Made by a program: the position numbers and the translations under genes. From a virus, in the IMG/VR virus record IMGVR_UViG_3300037520_002266, positions 1 to 32,264 of that record: DNA of 32,264 nucleotides, one strand, 5' to 3'. The notes under the pieces were generated by a model, which searched no databases, had not been told where the DNA came from, and worked only from the letters and a program-made list of their open reading frames with translations. Numbering within the stretch: position 1 is the first letter of the stretch; the number at the start of each line of letters is the position of its first letter. Below, in pieces: positions 18,322-31,227 of the stretch.

Positions 18322-18624
18322 TTAATTCTCATCTATCTGTAAATTCAACGTCTCAATCAATTTACTAATTTCTATTTCTTTTTCTATTATAAGGGCATTT
18401 AAGATAGTCTTGATAATTGGTAAATACAAATAATGAGGATTATAATTATCAACATTAATTCCATTAAAATCGATTTCCAAATTTAATTTAAGAGATACTT
18501 TAAAATTGCTATTCTCAATAAATTTTGAAACATTAGACATATATGAGTTTTCTTCATGTCTTAAGAATTTCAATACGTCTTCTTTGAATTTTTTAGAGAG
18601 TTTTTCAAGAATAGGAGAATTCAT
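18322..18624 (-). CDS. Unknown small protein (100 aa)
   Basis: A 100-aa protein with no motif that I recognise. The composition is helical and mixed charge: PILEKLSKKFKEDVLKFLRH at the N-terminus and an Ile/Leu/Glu-rich C-terminus (KEIEISKLIETLNLQ) that could be a short coiled coil. Its ATG overlaps the stop of the upstream HTH gene as ATGA (18621-18624), so the two are translated together, and the downstream basic-protein gene starts 2 bases after its stop. A partner of the HTH protein is possible but unsupported beyond coupling. Confidence 0.55.
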   Translation of the reverse strand: MNSPILEKLSKKFKEDVLKFLRHEENSYMSNVSKFIENSNFKVSLKLNLEIDFNGINVDNYNPHYLYLPIIKTILNALIIEKEIEISKLIETLNLQIDEN

Positions 18625-18926
18625 TTTTTACTCTTAGGAATAAGATCTTCATAGATAACACCAATTAGATTCGTCTCATCTTTTTTGTAAGATCTTATCG
18701 GTTTATCTTTTGGATTATGATTAAGACGATAATTTACAGATCCTCTATTTTTTGATTCTTCAACGAACTTTTTTAAATCAGCTATTTTGTAATGGACTCG
18801 ACCTTCTATCTTTCTGACAGGTATTCTGTTCTTTTTACGATATCTCCATTTTTCTAATGTAAATATAGATATTCCAAACAATCTAACCGCTTCCTCGTGT
18901 CCTATTAATTTATCGTCATCATCCAT
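18621..18926 (-). CDS. Excisionase/AlpA-like helix-turn-helix protein
   Basis: A 101-aa protein whose residues 7-62 form a MerR/excisionase-type winged helix: LIGHEEAVRLFGISIFTLEK (helix-turn-helix) followed by W-R-x-R-K-K-x-R-I-P-V-R-K-I-E-G-R-V-H-Y-K wing and an ADLKKFVEE helix. This matches the common pattern of DNA-bending excisionases or small phage regulators, in which the helix-turn-helix is followed by 'I.....G..yyr..dL..fl'. The C-terminal 35 residues are basic and probably extended. It could be a directionality factor for a missing integrase or a transcriptional regulator; the sequence does not decide. Confidence 0.65.
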   Translation of the reverse strand: MDDDDKLIGHEEAVRLFGISIFTLEKWRYRKKNRIPVRKIEGRVHYKIADLKKFVEESKNRGSVNYRLNHNPKDKPIRSYKKDETNLIGVIYEDLIPKSKK

Positions 18927-18956: not shown

Positions 18957-19337
18957 TTAGTTAATATAGAAAACATCTCTAAATTTCCTTATGAAACCTT
19001 CATTTCTTTTTGAGGTTGGCATATGATCTACATGCGAACATAGGTAATATAATCCTTGTCTAAAATAAGGTAATTCCAACAATTCAAAATGATTAAAAAC
19101 TAAATTAATCAATTTAACTTGGTTTGGGTGACTCTTAACGGCCATAGTATATTCAACCACATATTTTATAGGAGTGTCTAAATCGTAGGCAAGTAATTCC
19201 TGCATTAAATGATGTTTTTCAATAATCGCATTGTATTTAGGTAAATTTGTTTGTTTTAACTCATCAAGAGTTTGAGACATTAAGACGCTAAAGCTTGATA
19301 TGCTTAGAAAGCTTATTGTTAATAATTTCTTAATCAT
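18957..19337 (-). CDS. Exported protein with signal peptide (126 aa)
   Basis: A 126-aa protein beginning MIKKLLTISFLSISSFSVLM, a textbook signal peptide with two lysines, a 16-residue hydrophobic core and a likely cleavage near MSQ-TL around residue 21. There is no lipobox cysteine. The mature part is about 105 residues, has one cysteine (in LYYLCSHVDHMP) and no recognised fold. ATG overlaps the ProQ gene stop (ATGA at 19334-19337) and AAGGAT precedes it, so it is co-translated with the RNA-binding protein. A periplasmic phage-encoded factor, perhaps acting in superinfection or envelope modification, is a guess. Confidence 0.6.
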   Translation of the reverse strand: MIKKLLTISFLSISSFSVLMSQTLDELKQTNLPKYNAIIEKHHLMQELLAYDLDTPIKYVVEYTMAVKSHPNQVKLINLVFNHFELLELPYFRQGLYYLCSHVDHMPTSKRNEGFIRKFRDVFYIN

Positions 19338-19921
19338 TTTTTATCCTTTTCTTTAATAATATCCATCAACAATTGTGCATGCTCTTTTTCTGTTGTGGTT
19401 ATTTCCATGCATTTATTGCCTTGAAGATCAAATCTATGAGAGACTTTTATGATGTTCTCTAAATACATATGTCCATTACAATAAAACTTAATTGCTTGTT
19501 TAATATTTTTCTTCCATTCTTGAATACTTTTCTCAGTTAACTTTGGAAAATGAGTTAATAAATCATTAAAGATATCCTCAGCAATTCCAACCTTTAAAGG
19601 TTTCTTTCTCAATAGCTTATTAAACAAATTAGGGTAAGTTTTACACAACCAATTCAAAGTCGATTTTTTAGGATCTTTTGACTTTTCTTTTATTAACTTC
19701 TTTTTCGGTTTCTCAACTTTTATAGGAGAATTCTCAACGATGGTTTTCCGTTCATTTGTCTTTTTTTCTAAAATCTCTTTTAGTTTGTCTGAGGATAAGC
19801 TTAATTTTAGCGTCCCTTCTTTTATAGGAATTTTCGGCTTGCTCATTAGAGCGTTATTATATTTTAACAGAACAGATCTTGATTTATGTTCAATTTGAAG
19901 AAAAGTTTTTCTATGTTTCAT
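19334..19921 (-). CDS. ProQ/FinO-domain RNA-binding protein
   Basis: A 195-aa protein. Residues ~88-186 fit the ProQ/FinO domain: LNWLCKTYPNLF, then KPLKVGIAEDIF (107-118, the signature K-P-L-K-x-G-I), YCNGHMYLENII, and HRFDLQGN (162-169), followed by EITTTEKEHAQLLM. In known members (ProQ, FinO, RocC, NMB1681) this domain binds the base of a 3' terminator hairpin plus U-tail and acts as an RNA chaperone. The N-terminal ~87 residues are basic and Lys-rich (PKKKLIKEKSKDPKK), like the flexible RNA-binding extensions of FinO. It lies in a chain of overlapping genes (ATGA on both sides). The family call is strong; targets are unknown, but two predicted terminator-ended RNAs exist in this window. 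Confidence 0.85.
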   Translation of the reverse strand: MKHRKTFLQIEHKSRSVLLKYNNALMSKPKIPIKEGTLKLSLSSDKLKEILEKKTNERKTIVENSPIKVEKPKKKLIKEKSKDPKKSTLNWLCKTYPNLFNKLLRKKPLKVGIAEDIFNDLLTHFPKLTEKSIQEWKKNIKQAIKFYCNGHMYLENIIKVSHRFDLQGNKCMEITTTEKEHAQLLMDIIKEKDKK

Positions 19922-20103
19922 GAATGAATTTCTTCCTTTCGAAATGGCATATTTTCAAAGCCTTCTGTAAAATATCGAATGCGATTCTTCCTATTTTCTT
20001 CCGACAGAATATAATTATATGTTTTCGGGATATTCAAAGTTTCTTTCATTTTTTTCTGCAAATTTCTAACCTTTCGATTATAGACTTTTTTACAAACTTT
20101 CAT
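19918..20103 (-). CDS. Basic small protein (61 aa)
   Basis: A 61-aa Lys/Arg/Asn-rich protein coupled on both sides: its ATG is shared with the upstream stop (TAATG at 20101-20105) and its stop overlaps the ProQ-like gene's ATG (19918-19921). No motif is recognised. The N-terminal half (KVYNRKVRNLQKKMKE) is a positively charged helix, and the C-terminal half contains RKNRIRYF. Being between two conserved genes with tight coupling, it is probably real. Confidence 0.5.
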   Translation of the reverse strand: MKVCKKVYNRKVRNLQKKMKETLNIPKTYNYILSEENRKNRIRYFTEGFENMPFRKEEIHS

Positions 20104-20345
20104 TATATAGTTTCCTCTTCATCTGGCATTAATCTTAATATCCCTAATGAATGATATCTTATATAGCCGCAATTAAGGCAAAGAAGCATAACTGCGGGAA
20201 TGGTAGTTCCTTTCAGGAATTTTCTTTCCAAATTAAAAATACTATCTAGCATTGTAAACTTATTATGATCGCATGCAGGACACTGCATAATGGCGTCTTT
20301 TGACTTTAAAGTTTTAATAACATTTCTAAAAAATTCTTCTTTCAT
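20103..20345 (-). CDS. Zinc-ribbon protein (80 aa)
   Basis: An 80-aa protein with two CxxC pairs (C22/C25 in QCPACD and C56/C59 in LCLNCGY) 30 residues apart, forming a zinc ribbon. The segment IPAVMLLCLNCGYIRYHSLG is hydrophobic and typical of a family of small phage/bacterial zinc ribbons that carry 'P.v...C.nCGy...h....lg'. No enzyme domain is attached. Its ATG overlaps the stop of the 37-aa ORF upstream (20342-20345). Role unknown; such proteins often bind partners or nucleic acids. Confidence 0.6.
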   Translation of the reverse strand: MKEEFFRNVIKTLKSKDAIMQCPACDHNKFTMLDSIFNLERKFLKGTTIPAVMLLCLNCGYIRYHSLGILRLMPDEEETI

Positions 20346-20455
20346 CGTTTATCCTCAAAATTCTCAGCGATATCTTGCGTGATATTAGAAAAAGAAAGAT
20401 AAAGTCCAGGAAGAATTGCAAAGCAAATTGTAATAAAGCATAAAAAGTAGATCAT
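20342..20455 (-). CDS. Membrane microprotein (37 aa)
   Basis: ATG at 20455 is preceded by AAGGAA and the frame ends with TGA overlapping the next gene's ATG (ATGA). The product begins MIYFLCFITICFAILPGLYL, one transmembrane segment, followed by a polar tail of about 17 residues (SFSNITQDIAENFEDKR). The good ribosome binding site plus overlap support it. Function unknown. Confidence 0.6.
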   Translation of the reverse strand: MIYFLCFITICFAILPGLYLSFSNITQDIAENFEDKR

Positions 20456-20482: not shown

Positions 20483-20531
20483 CGAATTCGGCTTTCGTTA
20501 AACCGAATTCGGCTTTCGTTAAACCGAATTC
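20483..20531 (-). repeat. 21-bp tandem repeat with palindromic core
   Basis: The 21-bp unit CGAATTCGGCTTTCGTTAAAC stands at 20483-20503 and 20504-20524, with a third start (CGAATTC) at 20525-20531. The junctions form the perfect palindrome CCGAATTCGG. Read on the - strand, GAATTCGG and CCGAATTC can pair across an 11-base loop, giving a repeated hairpin immediately downstream of the zinc-finger gene stop at 20534. Possible transcript-end, processing or protein-binding site. Confidence 0.75.
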
Positions 20532-20874: not shown

Positions 20875-21054
20875 CTAATTCAAAACATTAATGATATCTT
20901 GTTCAACTTCTAAAATTTTTTCTGAGAGGTCTTTCACATCTTCTAACGTCTCTTCTACTTCCTCCAATGTTTCTTCTACTTTTTTTTCATCGCACCCCAA
21001 TAAAATACAGCCAACAAAAATGCCTAAGAGAAAGAATTTATTTGTTTTTTTCAT
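20875..21054 (-). CDS. Small acidic lipoprotein, possible o-spanin
   Basis: A 59-aa ORF, ATG at 21054 with AGAGGA upstream, ending TAG at 20875-20877. It begins MKKTNKFFLLGIFVGCILLG followed by C21-D-E: a short signal sequence with a good lipobox (LLGC), so the mature protein would be a ~39-residue lipoprotein. The mature part is an acidic heptad-like helix (VEETLEEVEETLEDVKDLSE). Outer-membrane spanin subunits of phages are small lipoproteins next to lysis genes, and the endolysin gene is only one gene upstream here; however o-spanins are usually proline rich and this is not. The start overlaps the end of the upstream gene by 17 bases. Confidence 0.7.
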   Translation of the reverse strand: MKKTNKFFLLGIFVGCILLGCDEKKVEETLEEVEETLEDVKDLSEKILEVEQDIINVLN

Positions 21055-21400
21055 TTTTCAAATCCTCTAATACAATCCATTTACTTACAGGAGGATATTG
21101 AAGCCTGTGTTGATAAACAATCCCAATTTTACGAAATATTCCACACAGTCCCTTATATGATAACTTTAATTTTTTCGCTCTTTTATGGAGTCCTTCATAC
21201 GGATGCAATCTCACATCTTCTTTTATCATGTTATAATCTTTAGGTTTCGGACCAGTTTTCTTATAGATAGGATTTATGCTCCATCTTTTTGCCGTTGTTT
21301 TATCTATTTCAAATATCTTACTTGCATCCACTAAAGATAGATTTTCTTCTTTTATTCTTTTCATAACATTTTCACGAAATTCAAGACTATATTTTGTCAT
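21038..21400 (-). CDS. Transposase-type helix-turn-helix protein (120 aa)
   Basis: A 120-aa protein starting MTKYSLEFRENVMKRIKEEN; GAGG lies just upstream of this ATG, so it is preferred to the longer start at 21421. Residues 4-40 (with ENLSLVDASKIFEIDKTTAK) form the helix-turn-helix found at the N-terminus of IS630/mariner-type transposases, followed by KTGPKPKD and a second helical DNA-binding unit (LKLSYKGLCGIFRKIGI). The DDE catalytic domain is absent and no inverted repeats are seen, so this is either a domesticated HTH regulator or a decayed remnant. It overlaps the endolysin by 14 bases. Confidence 0.6.
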   Translation of the reverse strand: MTKYSLEFRENVMKRIKEENLSLVDASKIFEIDKTTAKRWSINPIYKKTGPKPKDYNMIKEDVRLHPYEGLHKRAKKLKLSYKGLCGIFRKIGIVYQHRLQYPPVSKWIVLEDLKNEKNK

Positions 21401-21926
21401 TTTTAACCTCAAAATGATCATTGATTTCTTTAAGTGTTAAGACATTATTAACGGAACTGCTATTGACCTGGATATGACCGCTATCTTTATGTGCCCACGA
21501 ATAACCCGTTATAAGCTTTCCTGACATGACGGCTTTCTCTTTAAGATATCCATAAGCAGGATGAGAACCATCCCAGATATATTCAATCTTAGTGCGTCTA
21601 GGGTCTGTATAAACAACGTCAAGGGCTTTCCCCCAGTTATGCCAGGATAGGCCAGGGATTGTATTTGTAGCCCATCTCGCCATCGGTTGAGGCCCTACTT
21701 TATCGATAATAGAAGCCAGATAATGACAGCCTAGATTCTTTAGATGTTTCATCTCTGCAGCTATCTCTGTTGCATGCCTTGATTGCCGCCAAAGCTTAGC
21801 TTGCGTTTCTAGATCTCTTAACCCTTGAATCGGAACAAACTTATATCCATCTTTTTCACAAACCTCTAAAAGCTCTTGAACATCTTTTGAAAATTCTGGG
21901 TCTAATAAGTTAAAATCTACGGTCAT
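21387..21926 (-). CDS. Endolysin, M15 family zinc peptidase
   Basis: Start chosen at 21926 (MTVDFNLL), which has AAAGGA at good spacing; an in-frame ATG at 21977 has none. The 179-aa product is a peptidoglycan peptidase of the M15 family (L-Ala-D-Glu or D-Ala-D-Ala type, as in phage T5 endolysin). Signature SWHNWGKALD (residues 94-103) supplies zinc ligands H96 and D103, and SGHIQ (H151) gives the third. R37 in GLRD is the usual upstream arginine. No signal peptide, so it would need a holin for release; the tiny membrane ORFs upstream are candidates. It cleaves the host cell wall for lysis. Confidence 0.85.
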   Translation of the reverse strand: MTVDFNLLDPEFSKDVQELLEVCEKDGYKFVPIQGLRDLETQAKLWRQSRHATEIAAEMKHLKNLGCHYLASIIDKVGPQPMARWATNTIPGLSWHNWGKALDVVYTDPRRTKIEYIWDGSHPAYGYLKEKAVMSGKLITGYSWAHKDSGHIQVNSSSVNNVLTLKEINDHFEVKNDKI

Positions 21927-22012
21927 TTTTCGTCCTTTTATAGTCGTTTCATTATATATTGTAGAGAGAGTATGCATATTGCGCTGAGTATGAAATATAT
22001 TAAGAAGTTCAT

Positions 22013-22102
22013 TTATTTAAGTCTTCTCTGTATGAATTCAAACATAAAAATAAGGGATACTGAAGCAAAAGTGCATACCATGATATAAGAAAGAAAACTC
22101 AT
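22013..22102 (-). CDS. Membrane microprotein (29 aa) next to endolysin
   Basis: ATG at 22102 has AAGGAC upstream, and overlaps the stop of the preceding gene as ATGA (22099-22102). The 29 residues, MSFLSYIMVCTFASVSLIFM and then FEFIQRRLK, form one transmembrane helix with a positively charged cytoplasmic-like end. It lies directly upstream of the endolysin, where a holin or pinholin-like peptide might be expected, although it is shorter than any holin I know. The ORF is convincing from signals, and its role is inference. Confidence 0.6.
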   Translation of the reverse strand: MSFLSYIMVCTFASVSLIFMFEFIQRRLK

Positions 22103-22447: not shown

Positions 22448-22537
22448 TTAATGTCCTGTACGTCTTACTATTTCGGAGACAACAACAATGATTATTCCAC
22501 AAAAAGTGAATACACATACCCAAAATATAAACTTCAT
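22448..22537 (-). CDS. Membrane microprotein (29 aa)
   Basis: ATG at 22537 with AGAAG about 7 bases before it, ending TAA at 22448-22450. MKFIFWVCVFTFCGIIIVVV followed by SEIVRRTGH is a single hydrophobic helix with basic C-terminus, the same layout as the 29-aa ORF at 22013 but with different sequence. Stops five bases before the next gene's ATG. Function unknown; could be a small lysis- or superinfection-related peptide. Confidence 0.5.
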   Translation of the reverse strand: MKFIFWVCVFTFCGIIIVVVSEIVRRTGH

Positions 22538-28368: not shown

Positions 28369-28433
28369 GAGAGACTGGAAAAATAATTTATAATATTAAT
28401 CATTATGTTTTGTTGACTCTAAGCCAGTCTCTC
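28369..28433 (+). other. Long-range hairpin ahead of the tRNA-Gly-like piece
   Basis: GAGAGACTGG (28369-28378) and CCAGTCTCTC (28424-28433) are perfectly complementary over 10 bp, across an AT-rich 45-base loop. Its end is close to the T-arm-like sequence at 28451. Could be part of a + strand RNA or a DNA recombination site. Confidence 0.55.
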
Positions 28434-28445
28434 ACTTCAATGTTA

Positions 28446-28478
28446 AAGATGTCAGTTCGATTCTGTCTTCCCGCTCCA
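28446..28478 (+). other. tRNA-Gly 3' end fragment (possible attachment site)
   Basis: The segment reads like the 3' end of a bacterial tRNA-Gly: a T-arm with loop TTCGATT flanked by GTCAG/CTGTC (one mismatch), then the acceptor strand TTCCCGC, discriminator T and CCA (28476-28478). The matching 5' acceptor GCGGGAA is nowhere upstream, so this is not a whole tRNA gene. Phages that integrate in tRNA genes carry just such a 3' piece as attP or leave it as attL/attR. No integrase is seen in the window, so the att interpretation is inference. Confidence 0.4.
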
Positions 28479-28667: not shown

Positions 28668-28742
28668 TGGGGCGTAGTTTAAAGGTTAAAACCCTATACA
28701 TTTAGGTGTATAGATATATCGGGTTCGATTCCCGCCGCTCCA
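28668..28742 (+). tRNA. tRNA-like gene 1 with expanded anticodon arm
   Basis: A cloverleaf is visible. Acceptor TGGGGCG (28668-28674) pairs with CGCTCCA (28736-28742), including one G-T pair; T8-A9; D-arm GTTT/AAAC with loop AAAGGTTA (28677-28692); T-arm with loop TTCGATT between CGGG and CCCG (28720-28734). The anticodon arm CTATA...TATAG (28694-28713) is 20 nt instead of 17. It can be read as 5 bp with a 10-nt loop, as TATAC/GTATA with an 8-nt loop ATTTAGGT, or as 7 bp with a 6-nt loop TTTAGG. The identity is therefore ambiguous (UAG, Leu, or AGG, Pro, are readable). CCA as a tail is not clearly separate from the acceptor. Confidence 0.5.
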
Positions 28743-28751
28743 CTTTTTTAT

Positions 28752-30057: not shown

Positions 30058-31227
30058 TTATCCTCCAAGTGCAAAATCCACGATTTCACACCCAAAAGCC
30101 TTCGAAATTGCAGACTTGAAATGATTGTCCAAATAATCTCGAACAAAATAGCTTGGACAATACACCATAAGCTCATCTCCAGAACGCTTGAAAATAATCC
30201 GATAATCAATAAACCAGGATTTGTACTTCGCATCACCAATGATTCGATGCAATATCCTGCGCTCTTCTTCTGCAGGAATAGGGACTGAAATAGGCTCCGG
30301 CTCGGGAGGAGGTGTTTGTTTCTTAAACGCAGCAACAGGCTGTGAACGAACCTCAGACGTCGTCCAATAGACCTTATCGTGATTGATCTTCCGAAGTAAA
30401 CTTCCCTTCCAGGAAAGAATCACGTTCTTCGGATAGTTCCCAGAGTCCTTCCAGTAGTCACAGGTCTCTCGATAAGCTTCTTGTATTTTGCTTGGATGAA
30501 AATTCATCGCAAATGCAATTTCCTGCATCTCGTTCGTTAGTGAAAAATCTTCCTGCAATTCACCGGCTGTTTTAGTCAAAATTTTATTTTGAGAATTAGT
30601 AGTAGTAATAGCTAGGGCATTTTGATCAGAAGTAGCGTGTGATGAAATTTTAGGCACAGCCTCGCGCGCACACGCACTAGTAGTATATTTATAGGTACTA
30701 TATAGGTTATGCGTAGCTATTACATATGTTTGAGGCGAAAATGACATATGTTTTTTTATTACATCTGTAGCTATTACATCTGTTTTATCGTTAACATCTG
30801 TAGCTATTACATCTGTTTTATCGTTAACATCTGTAGCTATTACATCTGTTTTATCGTTAACATCTGTAGCTATTACATCTGTATTTTGTTCTATCTTTTT
30901 AGATCTTTTGGATTTTTTTGAGAGATATTCTTTGCTTGATTTTTCCCATTCATCAAGTAAGGGGACATTCAAATCATATACGCTTGTTTTCCTGATTGCG
31001 TAATTGTCTTGAACCTTAATAATAATTCCTGTCTTTATAAGTGACTTAAGGGATATTGATACGCCTTTTAAGGAAATTTCAGTAACTTCATGCATTGTTA
31101 ATGTACTAGCATAAATGTTCTTTCCTGTTTTGAAATCTGCTTTGCCTGCAAGGAAACTTAATAAAACTTTATCATTTCTTGAAAGTTGGCTCATTTTTAT
31201 TTGTGATATTTTATGCGTCCAGCTCAT
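30058..31227 (-). CDS. Replication initiator with DnaA-N-like C-terminal domain
   Basis: A 389-aa protein with GGAG just before ATG (31227). Residues ~14-90 look like a winged helix (SRNDKVLLSFLAGKA, then TMHEVTEISLKGVSISLKSL, GIIIKVQDNYAIRK) as in phage initiators. A basic linker (SKKSKRSKKIEQ) is followed by residues 116-158, an exact 11-residue tandem repeat TDVIATDVNDK. The C-terminal ~70 residues (RRILHRIIGDAKYKSWFIDY, then ELMVYCPSYFVRDYLDNHF) match the DnaA N-terminal domain, known for contacting DnaB helicase. Domain order (DNA binding, linker, helicase contact) is that of lambda O-type initiators. The linker DNA is itself repetitive (see 30722-30882). An Ala/Pro stretch VAAFKKQTPPPEPEPISVPI precedes the last domain. 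Confidence 0.75.
   Translation of the reverse strand: MSWTHKISQIKMSQLSRNDKVLLSFLAGKADFKTGKNIYASTLTMHEVTEISLKGVSISLKSLIKTGIIIKVQDNYAIRKTSVYDLNVPLLDEWEKSSKEYLSKKSKRSKKIEQNTDVIATDVNDKTDVIATDVNDKTDVIATDVNDKTDVIATDVIKKHMSFSPQTYVIATHNLYSTYKYTTSACAREAVPKISSHATSDQNALAITTTNSQNKILTKTAGELQEDFSLTNEMQEIAFAMNFHPSKIQEAYRETCDYWKDSGNYPKNVILSWKGSLLRKINHDKVYWTTSEVRSQPVAAFKKQTPPPEPEPISVPIPAEEERRILHRIIGDAKYKSWFIDYRIIFKRSGDELMVYCPSYFVRDYLDNHFKSAISKAFGCEIVDFALGG
30722..30882. repeat. Iteron-like array inside the initiator gene
   Basis: The octamer ACATCTGT occurs eight times on the + strand, starting at 30761, 30776, 30794, 30809, 30827, 30842, 30860 and 30875, with spacings of 15 and 18 bp alternating (33-bp period). 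Two related palindromic ACATATGT sites start at 30722 and 30744. The period equals 11 codons, so the protein repeat TDVIATDVNDK follows from it. An array of identical sites inside an initiator gene is the layout of the lambda origin, so this is a good origin candidate. Confidence 0.7.

What the first reader, a model, noticed from the sequence alone, without database searches (positions are those of the whole stretch)
19334..19921. Phage-encoded ProQ/FinO RNA chaperone
Residues 88-186 fit the ProQ/FinO domain with the KPLKVGI and RFDLQG signatures, with a Lys-rich N-terminal extension as in FinO. Such proteins bind sRNA/mRNA 3' hairpins and control conjugation or competence in bacteria, but a copy in a phage early operon, coupled to an exported protein, is unusual. 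It implies RNA-level control by the phage, possibly over its own small RNAs or over host ProQ targets.
Basis: partly seen in the sequence, partly recalled or inferred. Interest (0 to 1): 0.75.

Follow-up and report, generated by a model that had tools for sequence, protein, structure and literature searches.

The report
Phage-borne FinO-type RNA-binding protein
[quoted passage not shown] dozens of phage records already carry such genes, so the find is real but mostly ordinary, except for one lengthened helix that may change which RNA hairpins it reads.

Summary
Window 19334-19921 encodes a 195-aa basic protein whose residues 84-194 match Pfam ProQ/FinO (PF04352, E 3.6e-21, 75.6 bits against a cut-off of 27). 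AlphaFold models residues 81-195 at pLDDT of about 90-98 and matches RocC, FinO and NMB1681 (Z 11.6-14.3). The 3'-nucleotide pocket (RocC G52, Y87, R97) is intact. It is neither FinO proper nor ProQ proper, and lacks a C-terminal Tudor domain.

"Unusual in a phage" is not supported: Sodalis, Aeromonas, Erwinia, Shewanella, Rhizobium, Sinorhizobium, Salmonella and Cronobacter phages carry such genes, and a 2023 review names a phage-containing branch. The nearest relatives found lie in 18 of 42 Holosporales-type alphaproteobacterial genomes, several beside relaxase, Rep or Par genes.

Likely role (inferred): a narrow-target terminator binder that stabilises or pairs one or few RNAs, as plasmid FinO-like proteins do. 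No ligand was identified. One new detail: the RNA-contact helix is about seven residues longer at its N-terminus than in RocC, so the N-cap that grips the hairpin is displaced (Ser replaced by Trp), predicting altered tail-length or stem preference. New member of a known kind.

The parts
19334..19921 (-). ProQ/FinO-domain protein gene, 195 aa; FinO domain is residues 84-194, Lys-rich N-terminal extension residues 1-83
   Evidence: PF04352 E 3.6e-21; AlphaFold and PDB matches
19478..19534 (-). Codons for residues 130-148: the lengthened RNA-contact helix (approximate; residue n ends at 19921-3n+1)
   Evidence: Helix 130-148 in the model against 71-82 in the RocC orthologue control; spacer length 45 against 34-42 in nearly all relatives
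18957..19337 (-). Signal-peptide-like 126-aa ORF, overlapping the ProQ/FinO gene by 4 nt; no family match
19918..20103 (-). 61-aa ORF directly upstream, 4-nt overlap with the ProQ/FinO start
20103..20345 (-). 80-aa zinc-ribbon-like ORF of the same cluster
   Evidence: CPAC/CLNC motifs in the translation; weak sub-cut-off PF21349 hit
20342..20455 (-). 37-aa hydrophobic ORF, first of the overlapping cluster
20483..20531 (-). Two perfect 21-nt repeats plus a partial third, forming a 12-bp hairpin with an AU-rich tail at the head of the cluster: candidate ligand or attenuator, unproven
   Evidence: 0 expected by chance; z -4.8
18621..18926 (-). HTH (HTH_17/excisionase-like) protein downstream
   Evidence: below the Pfam cut-off
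21387..21977 (-). VanY-type peptidase, endolysin-like, upstream on the same strand
   Evidence: PF02557 E 3.2e-11; PHROG 465

Best explanation
The gene encodes a true ProQ/FinO-domain RNA-binding protein of the heterogeneous mobile-element branch of the family, most like FinO-type proteins of conjugative and plasmid-like elements of Holosporales-type Alphaproteobacteria. SHOWN (sequence and model): domain, fold and 3'-end pocket residues. INFERRED: it binds the base and 3' single-stranded tail of terminator hairpins and, like FinO, FopA, PcnR and RocC, stabilises one or few RNAs and speeds antisense pairing, with the Lys-rich N-terminal extension supplying chaperone activity. The target is probably an RNA of the phage itself or of a co-resident element rather than the host transcriptome at large. 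SPECULATIVE: the paired hairpins at 20483-20531, at the head of its own gene cluster, are a ligand and give autoregulation.
For: PF04352 E 3.6e-21; PDB sequence matches; model pLDDT 90-98 over the domain and Z 11.6-14.3 to FinO, NMB1681 and RocC; G112, Y153, R163 and K141 at the RocC G52, Y87, R97 and R75 positions, the pocket invariant in 44 relatives. Nearest relatives found in 18 of 42 Holosporales-type genomes, several copies beside relaxase, coupling-protein, Rep or Par genes. Plasmid-borne family members have narrow targets and act on their own element (PMC9977716).
Against: No ligand known; no RNA binding tested. R75/R58 is Lys and the N-cap Ser is Trp with a displaced helix start, which could weaken duplex gripping. 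The tree does not firmly group the window with the plasmid-type copies. The gene is absent from the 17 virus records checked that share other genes with the window, many of them fragments, so conservation within a phage lineage is not shown.
Confidence: 0.6

Rival explanations
1. A broad ProQ-like regulator that acts on host mRNAs and sRNAs during infection, stabilising them or displacing them from host ProQ or Hfq.
For: FinO domains largely read shape rather than sequence (PMC9977716), and minimal members such as NMB1681 are global binders; the model matches NMB1681.
Against: Nearest relatives are mobile-element copies, and known mobile-element members have narrow targets. A long Lys-rich N-terminal extension is typical of restricted FinO-like proteins.
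Confidence: 0.15
2. A weapon against competing mobile elements: it binds antisense RNAs or replication-control RNAs of co-resident plasmids or phages and blocks their transfer or replication.
For: Putative hosts carry up to five FinO-type genes on conjugative or plasmid-like elements; FinO can act on a cohabiting plasmid and a plasmid sRNA can use host RocC to ward off other elements (PMC9977716).
Against: Host unassigned; no target identified; no defence-type neighbours recognised.
Confidence: 0.15
3. A recently acquired accessory gene with no conserved role in this phage.
For: It lies in an AT-rich stretch (gene 28.2% GC, window 35.8%) and is absent from the searched records sharing other genes.
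Against: Intact frame, conserved pocket residues, and start and stop that overlap both neighbours; the neighbouring small genes are equally AT-rich.
Confidence: 0.1

Closest known systems
FinO-type proteins on conjugative and plasmid-like elements of Holosporales-type Alphaproteobacteria (for example L186, L190, L194)
   Same: Highest similarity found (33-39% identity, best E 2.5e-17 in one genome), similar size, Lys-rich N-terminal extension, same branch by distance
   Different: They lie beside relaxase, Rep or Par genes rather than phage genes, and keep the usual helix start; the window protein has a longer contact helix
RocC (Legionella pneumophila competence repressor; PDB 7RGU with the RocR terminator)
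   Same: Best solved structure: Z 14.3, same pocket residues G52/Y87/R97
   Different: 26-29% identity; RocC has a C-terminal extension and Ser70 N-cap; the window protein has an N-terminal extension, Trp at the N-cap position and a helix about 7 residues longer
FinO of F-like plasmids (PDB 1DVO)
   Same: FinO-domain fold (Z 11.6) and a basic N-terminal extension
   Different: 22% identity, far below the NCBIfam FinO cut-off; no FinP or traJ counterpart recognised
Phage-encoded ProQ/FinO proteins: Sodalis phiSG1, Aeromonas LAh_8, Erwinia Hena2, Shewanella KASIA_p031, Rhizobium RHph_N34, Sinorhizobium phiM9
   Same: Same domain, carried by phages, functions unknown
   Different: Mostly large enterobacterial, Aeromonas or Shewanella phages whose proteins group apart from the window in the tree; different gene context
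Enterobacterial ProQ
   Same: FinO domain with key residues R58/Y70/R80 as K141/Y153/R163
   Different: No linker or Tudor domain; below the NCBIfam ProQ cut-off (45.7 against 127 bits)

Membership tests
ProQ/FinO family (PF04352) | Profile match above the curated cut-off | tested here: met
   75.6 bits against 27, E 3.6e-21
ProQ/FinO family (PF04352) | FinO-domain fold (helices and a two-stranded sheet forming a concave face) | tested here: met
   Model pLDDT 90-98 over the domain; PDB hits all FinO-domain, Z up to 14.3
ProQ/FinO family (PF04352) | Conserved 3'-nucleotide pocket (RocC G52, Y87, R97) | tested here: met
   G112, Y153, R163; invariant in 44 relatives
ProQ/FinO family (PF04352) | N-cap motif (RocC S70-K71-S72 with R75) at the conserved helix start | tested here: not met
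   W136-K137-K138 with K141; modelled helix starts about 7 residues earlier than in the RocC control. A deviation in one motif; the profile, fold and pocket still place it in the family
ProQ/FinO family (PF04352) | Small basic protein of 14-27 kDa | tested here: met
   23.0 kDa, pI 9.9
ProQ/FinO family (PF04352) | Binds hairpin-plus-3'-tail RNA | not testable with these tools
   Needs purified protein
FinO proper (F-plasmid fertility inhibition protein) | NCBIfam NF010317 cut-off | tested here: not met
   23.6 bits against 136
Enterobacterial-type chromosomal ProQ | NCBIfam NF003434 cut-off and a C-terminal Tudor domain | tested here: not met
   45.7 bits against 127; the protein ends one residue after the PF04352 match, so there is no room for a C-terminal domain

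The most novel reading that the evidence does not exclude
A FinO-domain protein in which the terminator-gripping helix is extended by about two turns, moving the N-cap away from the 3'-end pocket, so that it reads hairpins with a longer 3' tail (or loses duplex reading): a shifted ruler for RNA tails, used by a phage on its own or its host's transcripts.
Probability: 0.25. Interest if true: 0.5.

Novelty: new member of a known kind. Interest (0 to 1): 0.3.

Why it matters
It adds a phage-borne member from a lineage unlike the enterobacterial phage copies and points to a possible flow of FinO-like regulators between plasmids and phages in Holosporales-type Alphaproteobacteria. No study of the ligands of a phage-encoded FinO-domain protein turned up in the literature searched here, so the general question of what phages do with them looks open. 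The lengthened contact helix gives a natural variant with which to test how this family measures the 3' tail of terminators.

Tried and rejected
Single-sequence scans of viral contigs with the ProQ, RecE and exported proteins found no relatives. The phage structural protein was not found in 42 Holosporales-type or 143 Legionellales genomes, so the host stays unassigned (nearest isolates are Caulobacter phages, 32% identity over 98% of the length). The Rep-like protein shares a C-terminal DnaA_N domain with Holosporales plasmid Rep proteins, but only a short 52-residue match; a shared plasmid origin was not supported. The exported protein has no relatives in the Holosporales-type genomes. Rfam gave nothing apart from the tRNA-like gene and one sub-threshold hit. 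Terminator-like sites are not clearly enriched. A chance motif match was rejected (E 3.6e-21). Membership of FinO proper or ProQ proper was rejected.

Full report
CHECK OF THE OBSERVATION. The interval 19334-19921 is an open frame on the minus strand, 195 aa, ATG start. hmmscan gives PF04352 ProQ/FINO at E 3.6e-21, 75.6 bits against a curated cut-off of 27, residues 84-194, far beyond chance. By sequence it matches solved FinO-domain proteins: RocC (1.5e-10), the L. pneumophila ProQ homologue 6S10 (1e-7) and E. coli ProQ (1e-6). AlphaFold on a 44-sequence alignment gives block-mean pLDDT of 90-98 over residues 81-195, and about 52-76 over the N-terminal 80. Foldseek's first 27 PDB hits are all FinO-domain chains; VIA-align gives Z 14.3 (RocC, rmsd 2.5, 103 aligned), 12.4 (NMB1681, rmsd 9.3, 108 aligned), 11.6 (FinO, rmsd 2.6, 102 aligned) and 10.9 (6S10, rmsd 3.4, 109 aligned). 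The protein is 23.0 kDa with pI 9.9.

RNA-BINDING RESIDUES. Structural and mutational work on RocC identifies a pocket for the 3' nucleotide (G52, Y87, R97) and an N-cap (S70, K71, S72, with R75) that grips the hairpin strand (PMC9674577); in E. coli ProQ, R58, Y70 and R80 are essential (PMC10578477). In the window protein the RocC positions G52, Y87, R97 and R75 are G112, Y153, R163 and K141. Nine positions, including the pocket, are invariant in 44 relatives. The N-cap, however, is W136-K137-K138. The spacing from PLK to the pocket Tyr is 45 residues here, against 34-42 in nearly all of about 100 relatives. One other (L116) has 47, but it keeps a T-K-T N-cap, so its insert lies in the loop before the helix. 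The model makes one helix of 130-148. The same pipeline run on a Legionella norrlandica RocC orthologue starts that helix at 71, directly after Ser70, which agrees with the published N-cap. So the helix is lengthened by about 7 residues (about two turns) and the N-cap is displaced. This rests on a prediction, from an alignment in which no other row has the insert. Because tail-length specificity differs between FinO domains (PMC9674577), an altered tail or stem preference is a reasonable, untested prediction.

CONTEXT. The gene lies in a run of overlapping minus-strand ORFs: 20455-20342 (37 aa, hydrophobic), 20345-20103 (zinc-ribbon-like), 20103-19918, ProQ/FinO 19921-19334, and 19337-18957 (signal-peptide-like); after a 30-nt gap follow 18926-18621 (HTH), 18624-18322 and 18319-17933. 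Upstream on the same strand are a VanY-type peptidase (PF02557 3.2e-11), RecT, RecE, a resolvase-like nuclease and a replication protein. Hence 'early operon' is plausible only in the sense of same strand; expression timing was not tested. Directly before this cluster two perfect 21-nt repeats and a partial third form a 12-bp hairpin followed by AUUUUAAUU (z -4.8) with a mutually exclusive alternative pairing (the exclusivity is read directly from the sequence). This is the best local candidate for a FinO-type ligand or attenuator, but only a candidate: terminator-like sites overall are 11 against 6.6 +/- 3.1 expected.

RELATIVES AND ORIGIN. The window is a 32,264-base virus record. Its structural genes look podovirus-like (inference), the nearest isolates for one of them being Caulobacter phages (32% over 98%). 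ProQ/FinO is absent from 17 virus records that share its structural, RecT or VanY genes, many of them fragments. The best ProQ relatives found are in the order of the genome holding L103 (Candidatus Finniella; Holosporales-type Alphaproteobacteria): 18 of 42 genomes, up to five copies, best E 2.5e-17. In the fetched neighbourhoods several copies lie beside MobA/MobL relaxase genes or near TrwB-type coupling proteins (L190, L192, L194), and others lie on contigs with HU, Rep and ParA/ParB (L186-L188). A tree of 49 domains places the window nearest by path length to these, and apart from the enterobacterial/Aeromonas/Shewanella phage set, but without strong support. The phage's structural gene was not found in those genomes, so the host is not assigned.

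IS IT UNUSUAL IN A PHAGE? No. tblastn and fold searches find ProQ/FinO genes in Sodalis phiSG1, Aeromonas LAh_6/8/9, 4_4572 and BUCT695 and 18 Erwinia phage records, Rhizobium RHph_N34 and Cronobacter JK004, Shewanella KASIA (discussed in PMC8541194), and Sinorhizobium phiM9, Salmonella 7-11 and Escherichia SU7. The 2023 family review describes a branch that groups chromosomal, plasmid and phage-encoded members (PMC9977716). Several PHROG families of 'unknown function' (21591, 18901, 35316 and others) match these proteins.

MECHANISM. Shown: domain, fold and pocket. From established knowledge of the family (PMC9977716): such domains hold the 3' tail of terminator hairpins and protect the RNA; extensions supply chaperoning; plasmid-borne members have narrow targets and usually repress their own element. 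Inferred: the phage protein does the same for one or few RNAs of phage or co-resident-element origin. The rivals (broad host RNA control, interference with competing elements, recently acquired accessory gene) are weighed in their own section; none is excluded.

VERDICT. Observation confirmed with the strand corrected; interpretation partly supported; new member of a known kind; interest 0.3, with one testable structural peculiarity.

Noticed in passing
window 28668-28743 (+), and about 28430-28476 (+): tRNA-like gene with an 8-nt anticodon loop (ARAGORN 'ttag', type unassigned; Rfam tRNA 40.1 bits) on the strand opposite to its neighbours, and, by eye, a second tRNA 3'-half remnant nearby. 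Possibly a four-base-anticodon or decayed tRNA.
   Followed up: no
window 30058-31227 (-): Replication-type protein with a C-terminal DnaA_N domain (PF11638, 1.9e-7) and a 33-bp in-frame tandem repeat at 30728-30918; Holosporales plasmid Rep proteins share the C-terminal DnaA_N layout.
   Followed up: partly
loci L186-L197 (order of G016): Holosporales-type genomes carry up to five ProQ/FinO copies each, several beside relaxase, coupling-protein, Rep or Par genes: a little-described FinO-like expansion in these bacteria (no paper in the library held both ProQ and Holosporales).
   Followed up: partly
PHROGs 21591, 18752, 18901, 35316, 30855: Phage protein families labelled 'unknown function' that match ProQ/FinO proteins and could be relabelled.
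   Followed up: partly
window 21038-21421 (-): Small protein with only the HTH part of an IS630-type transposase (PF01710, 2.7e-6).
   Followed up: no
window 20875-21054 (-), 22013-22102 (-), 22448-22537 (-): Small lipoprotein-like and single-transmembrane-like ORFs flanking the VanY-type gene: a possible lysis cassette (holin or spanin candidates).
   Followed up: no
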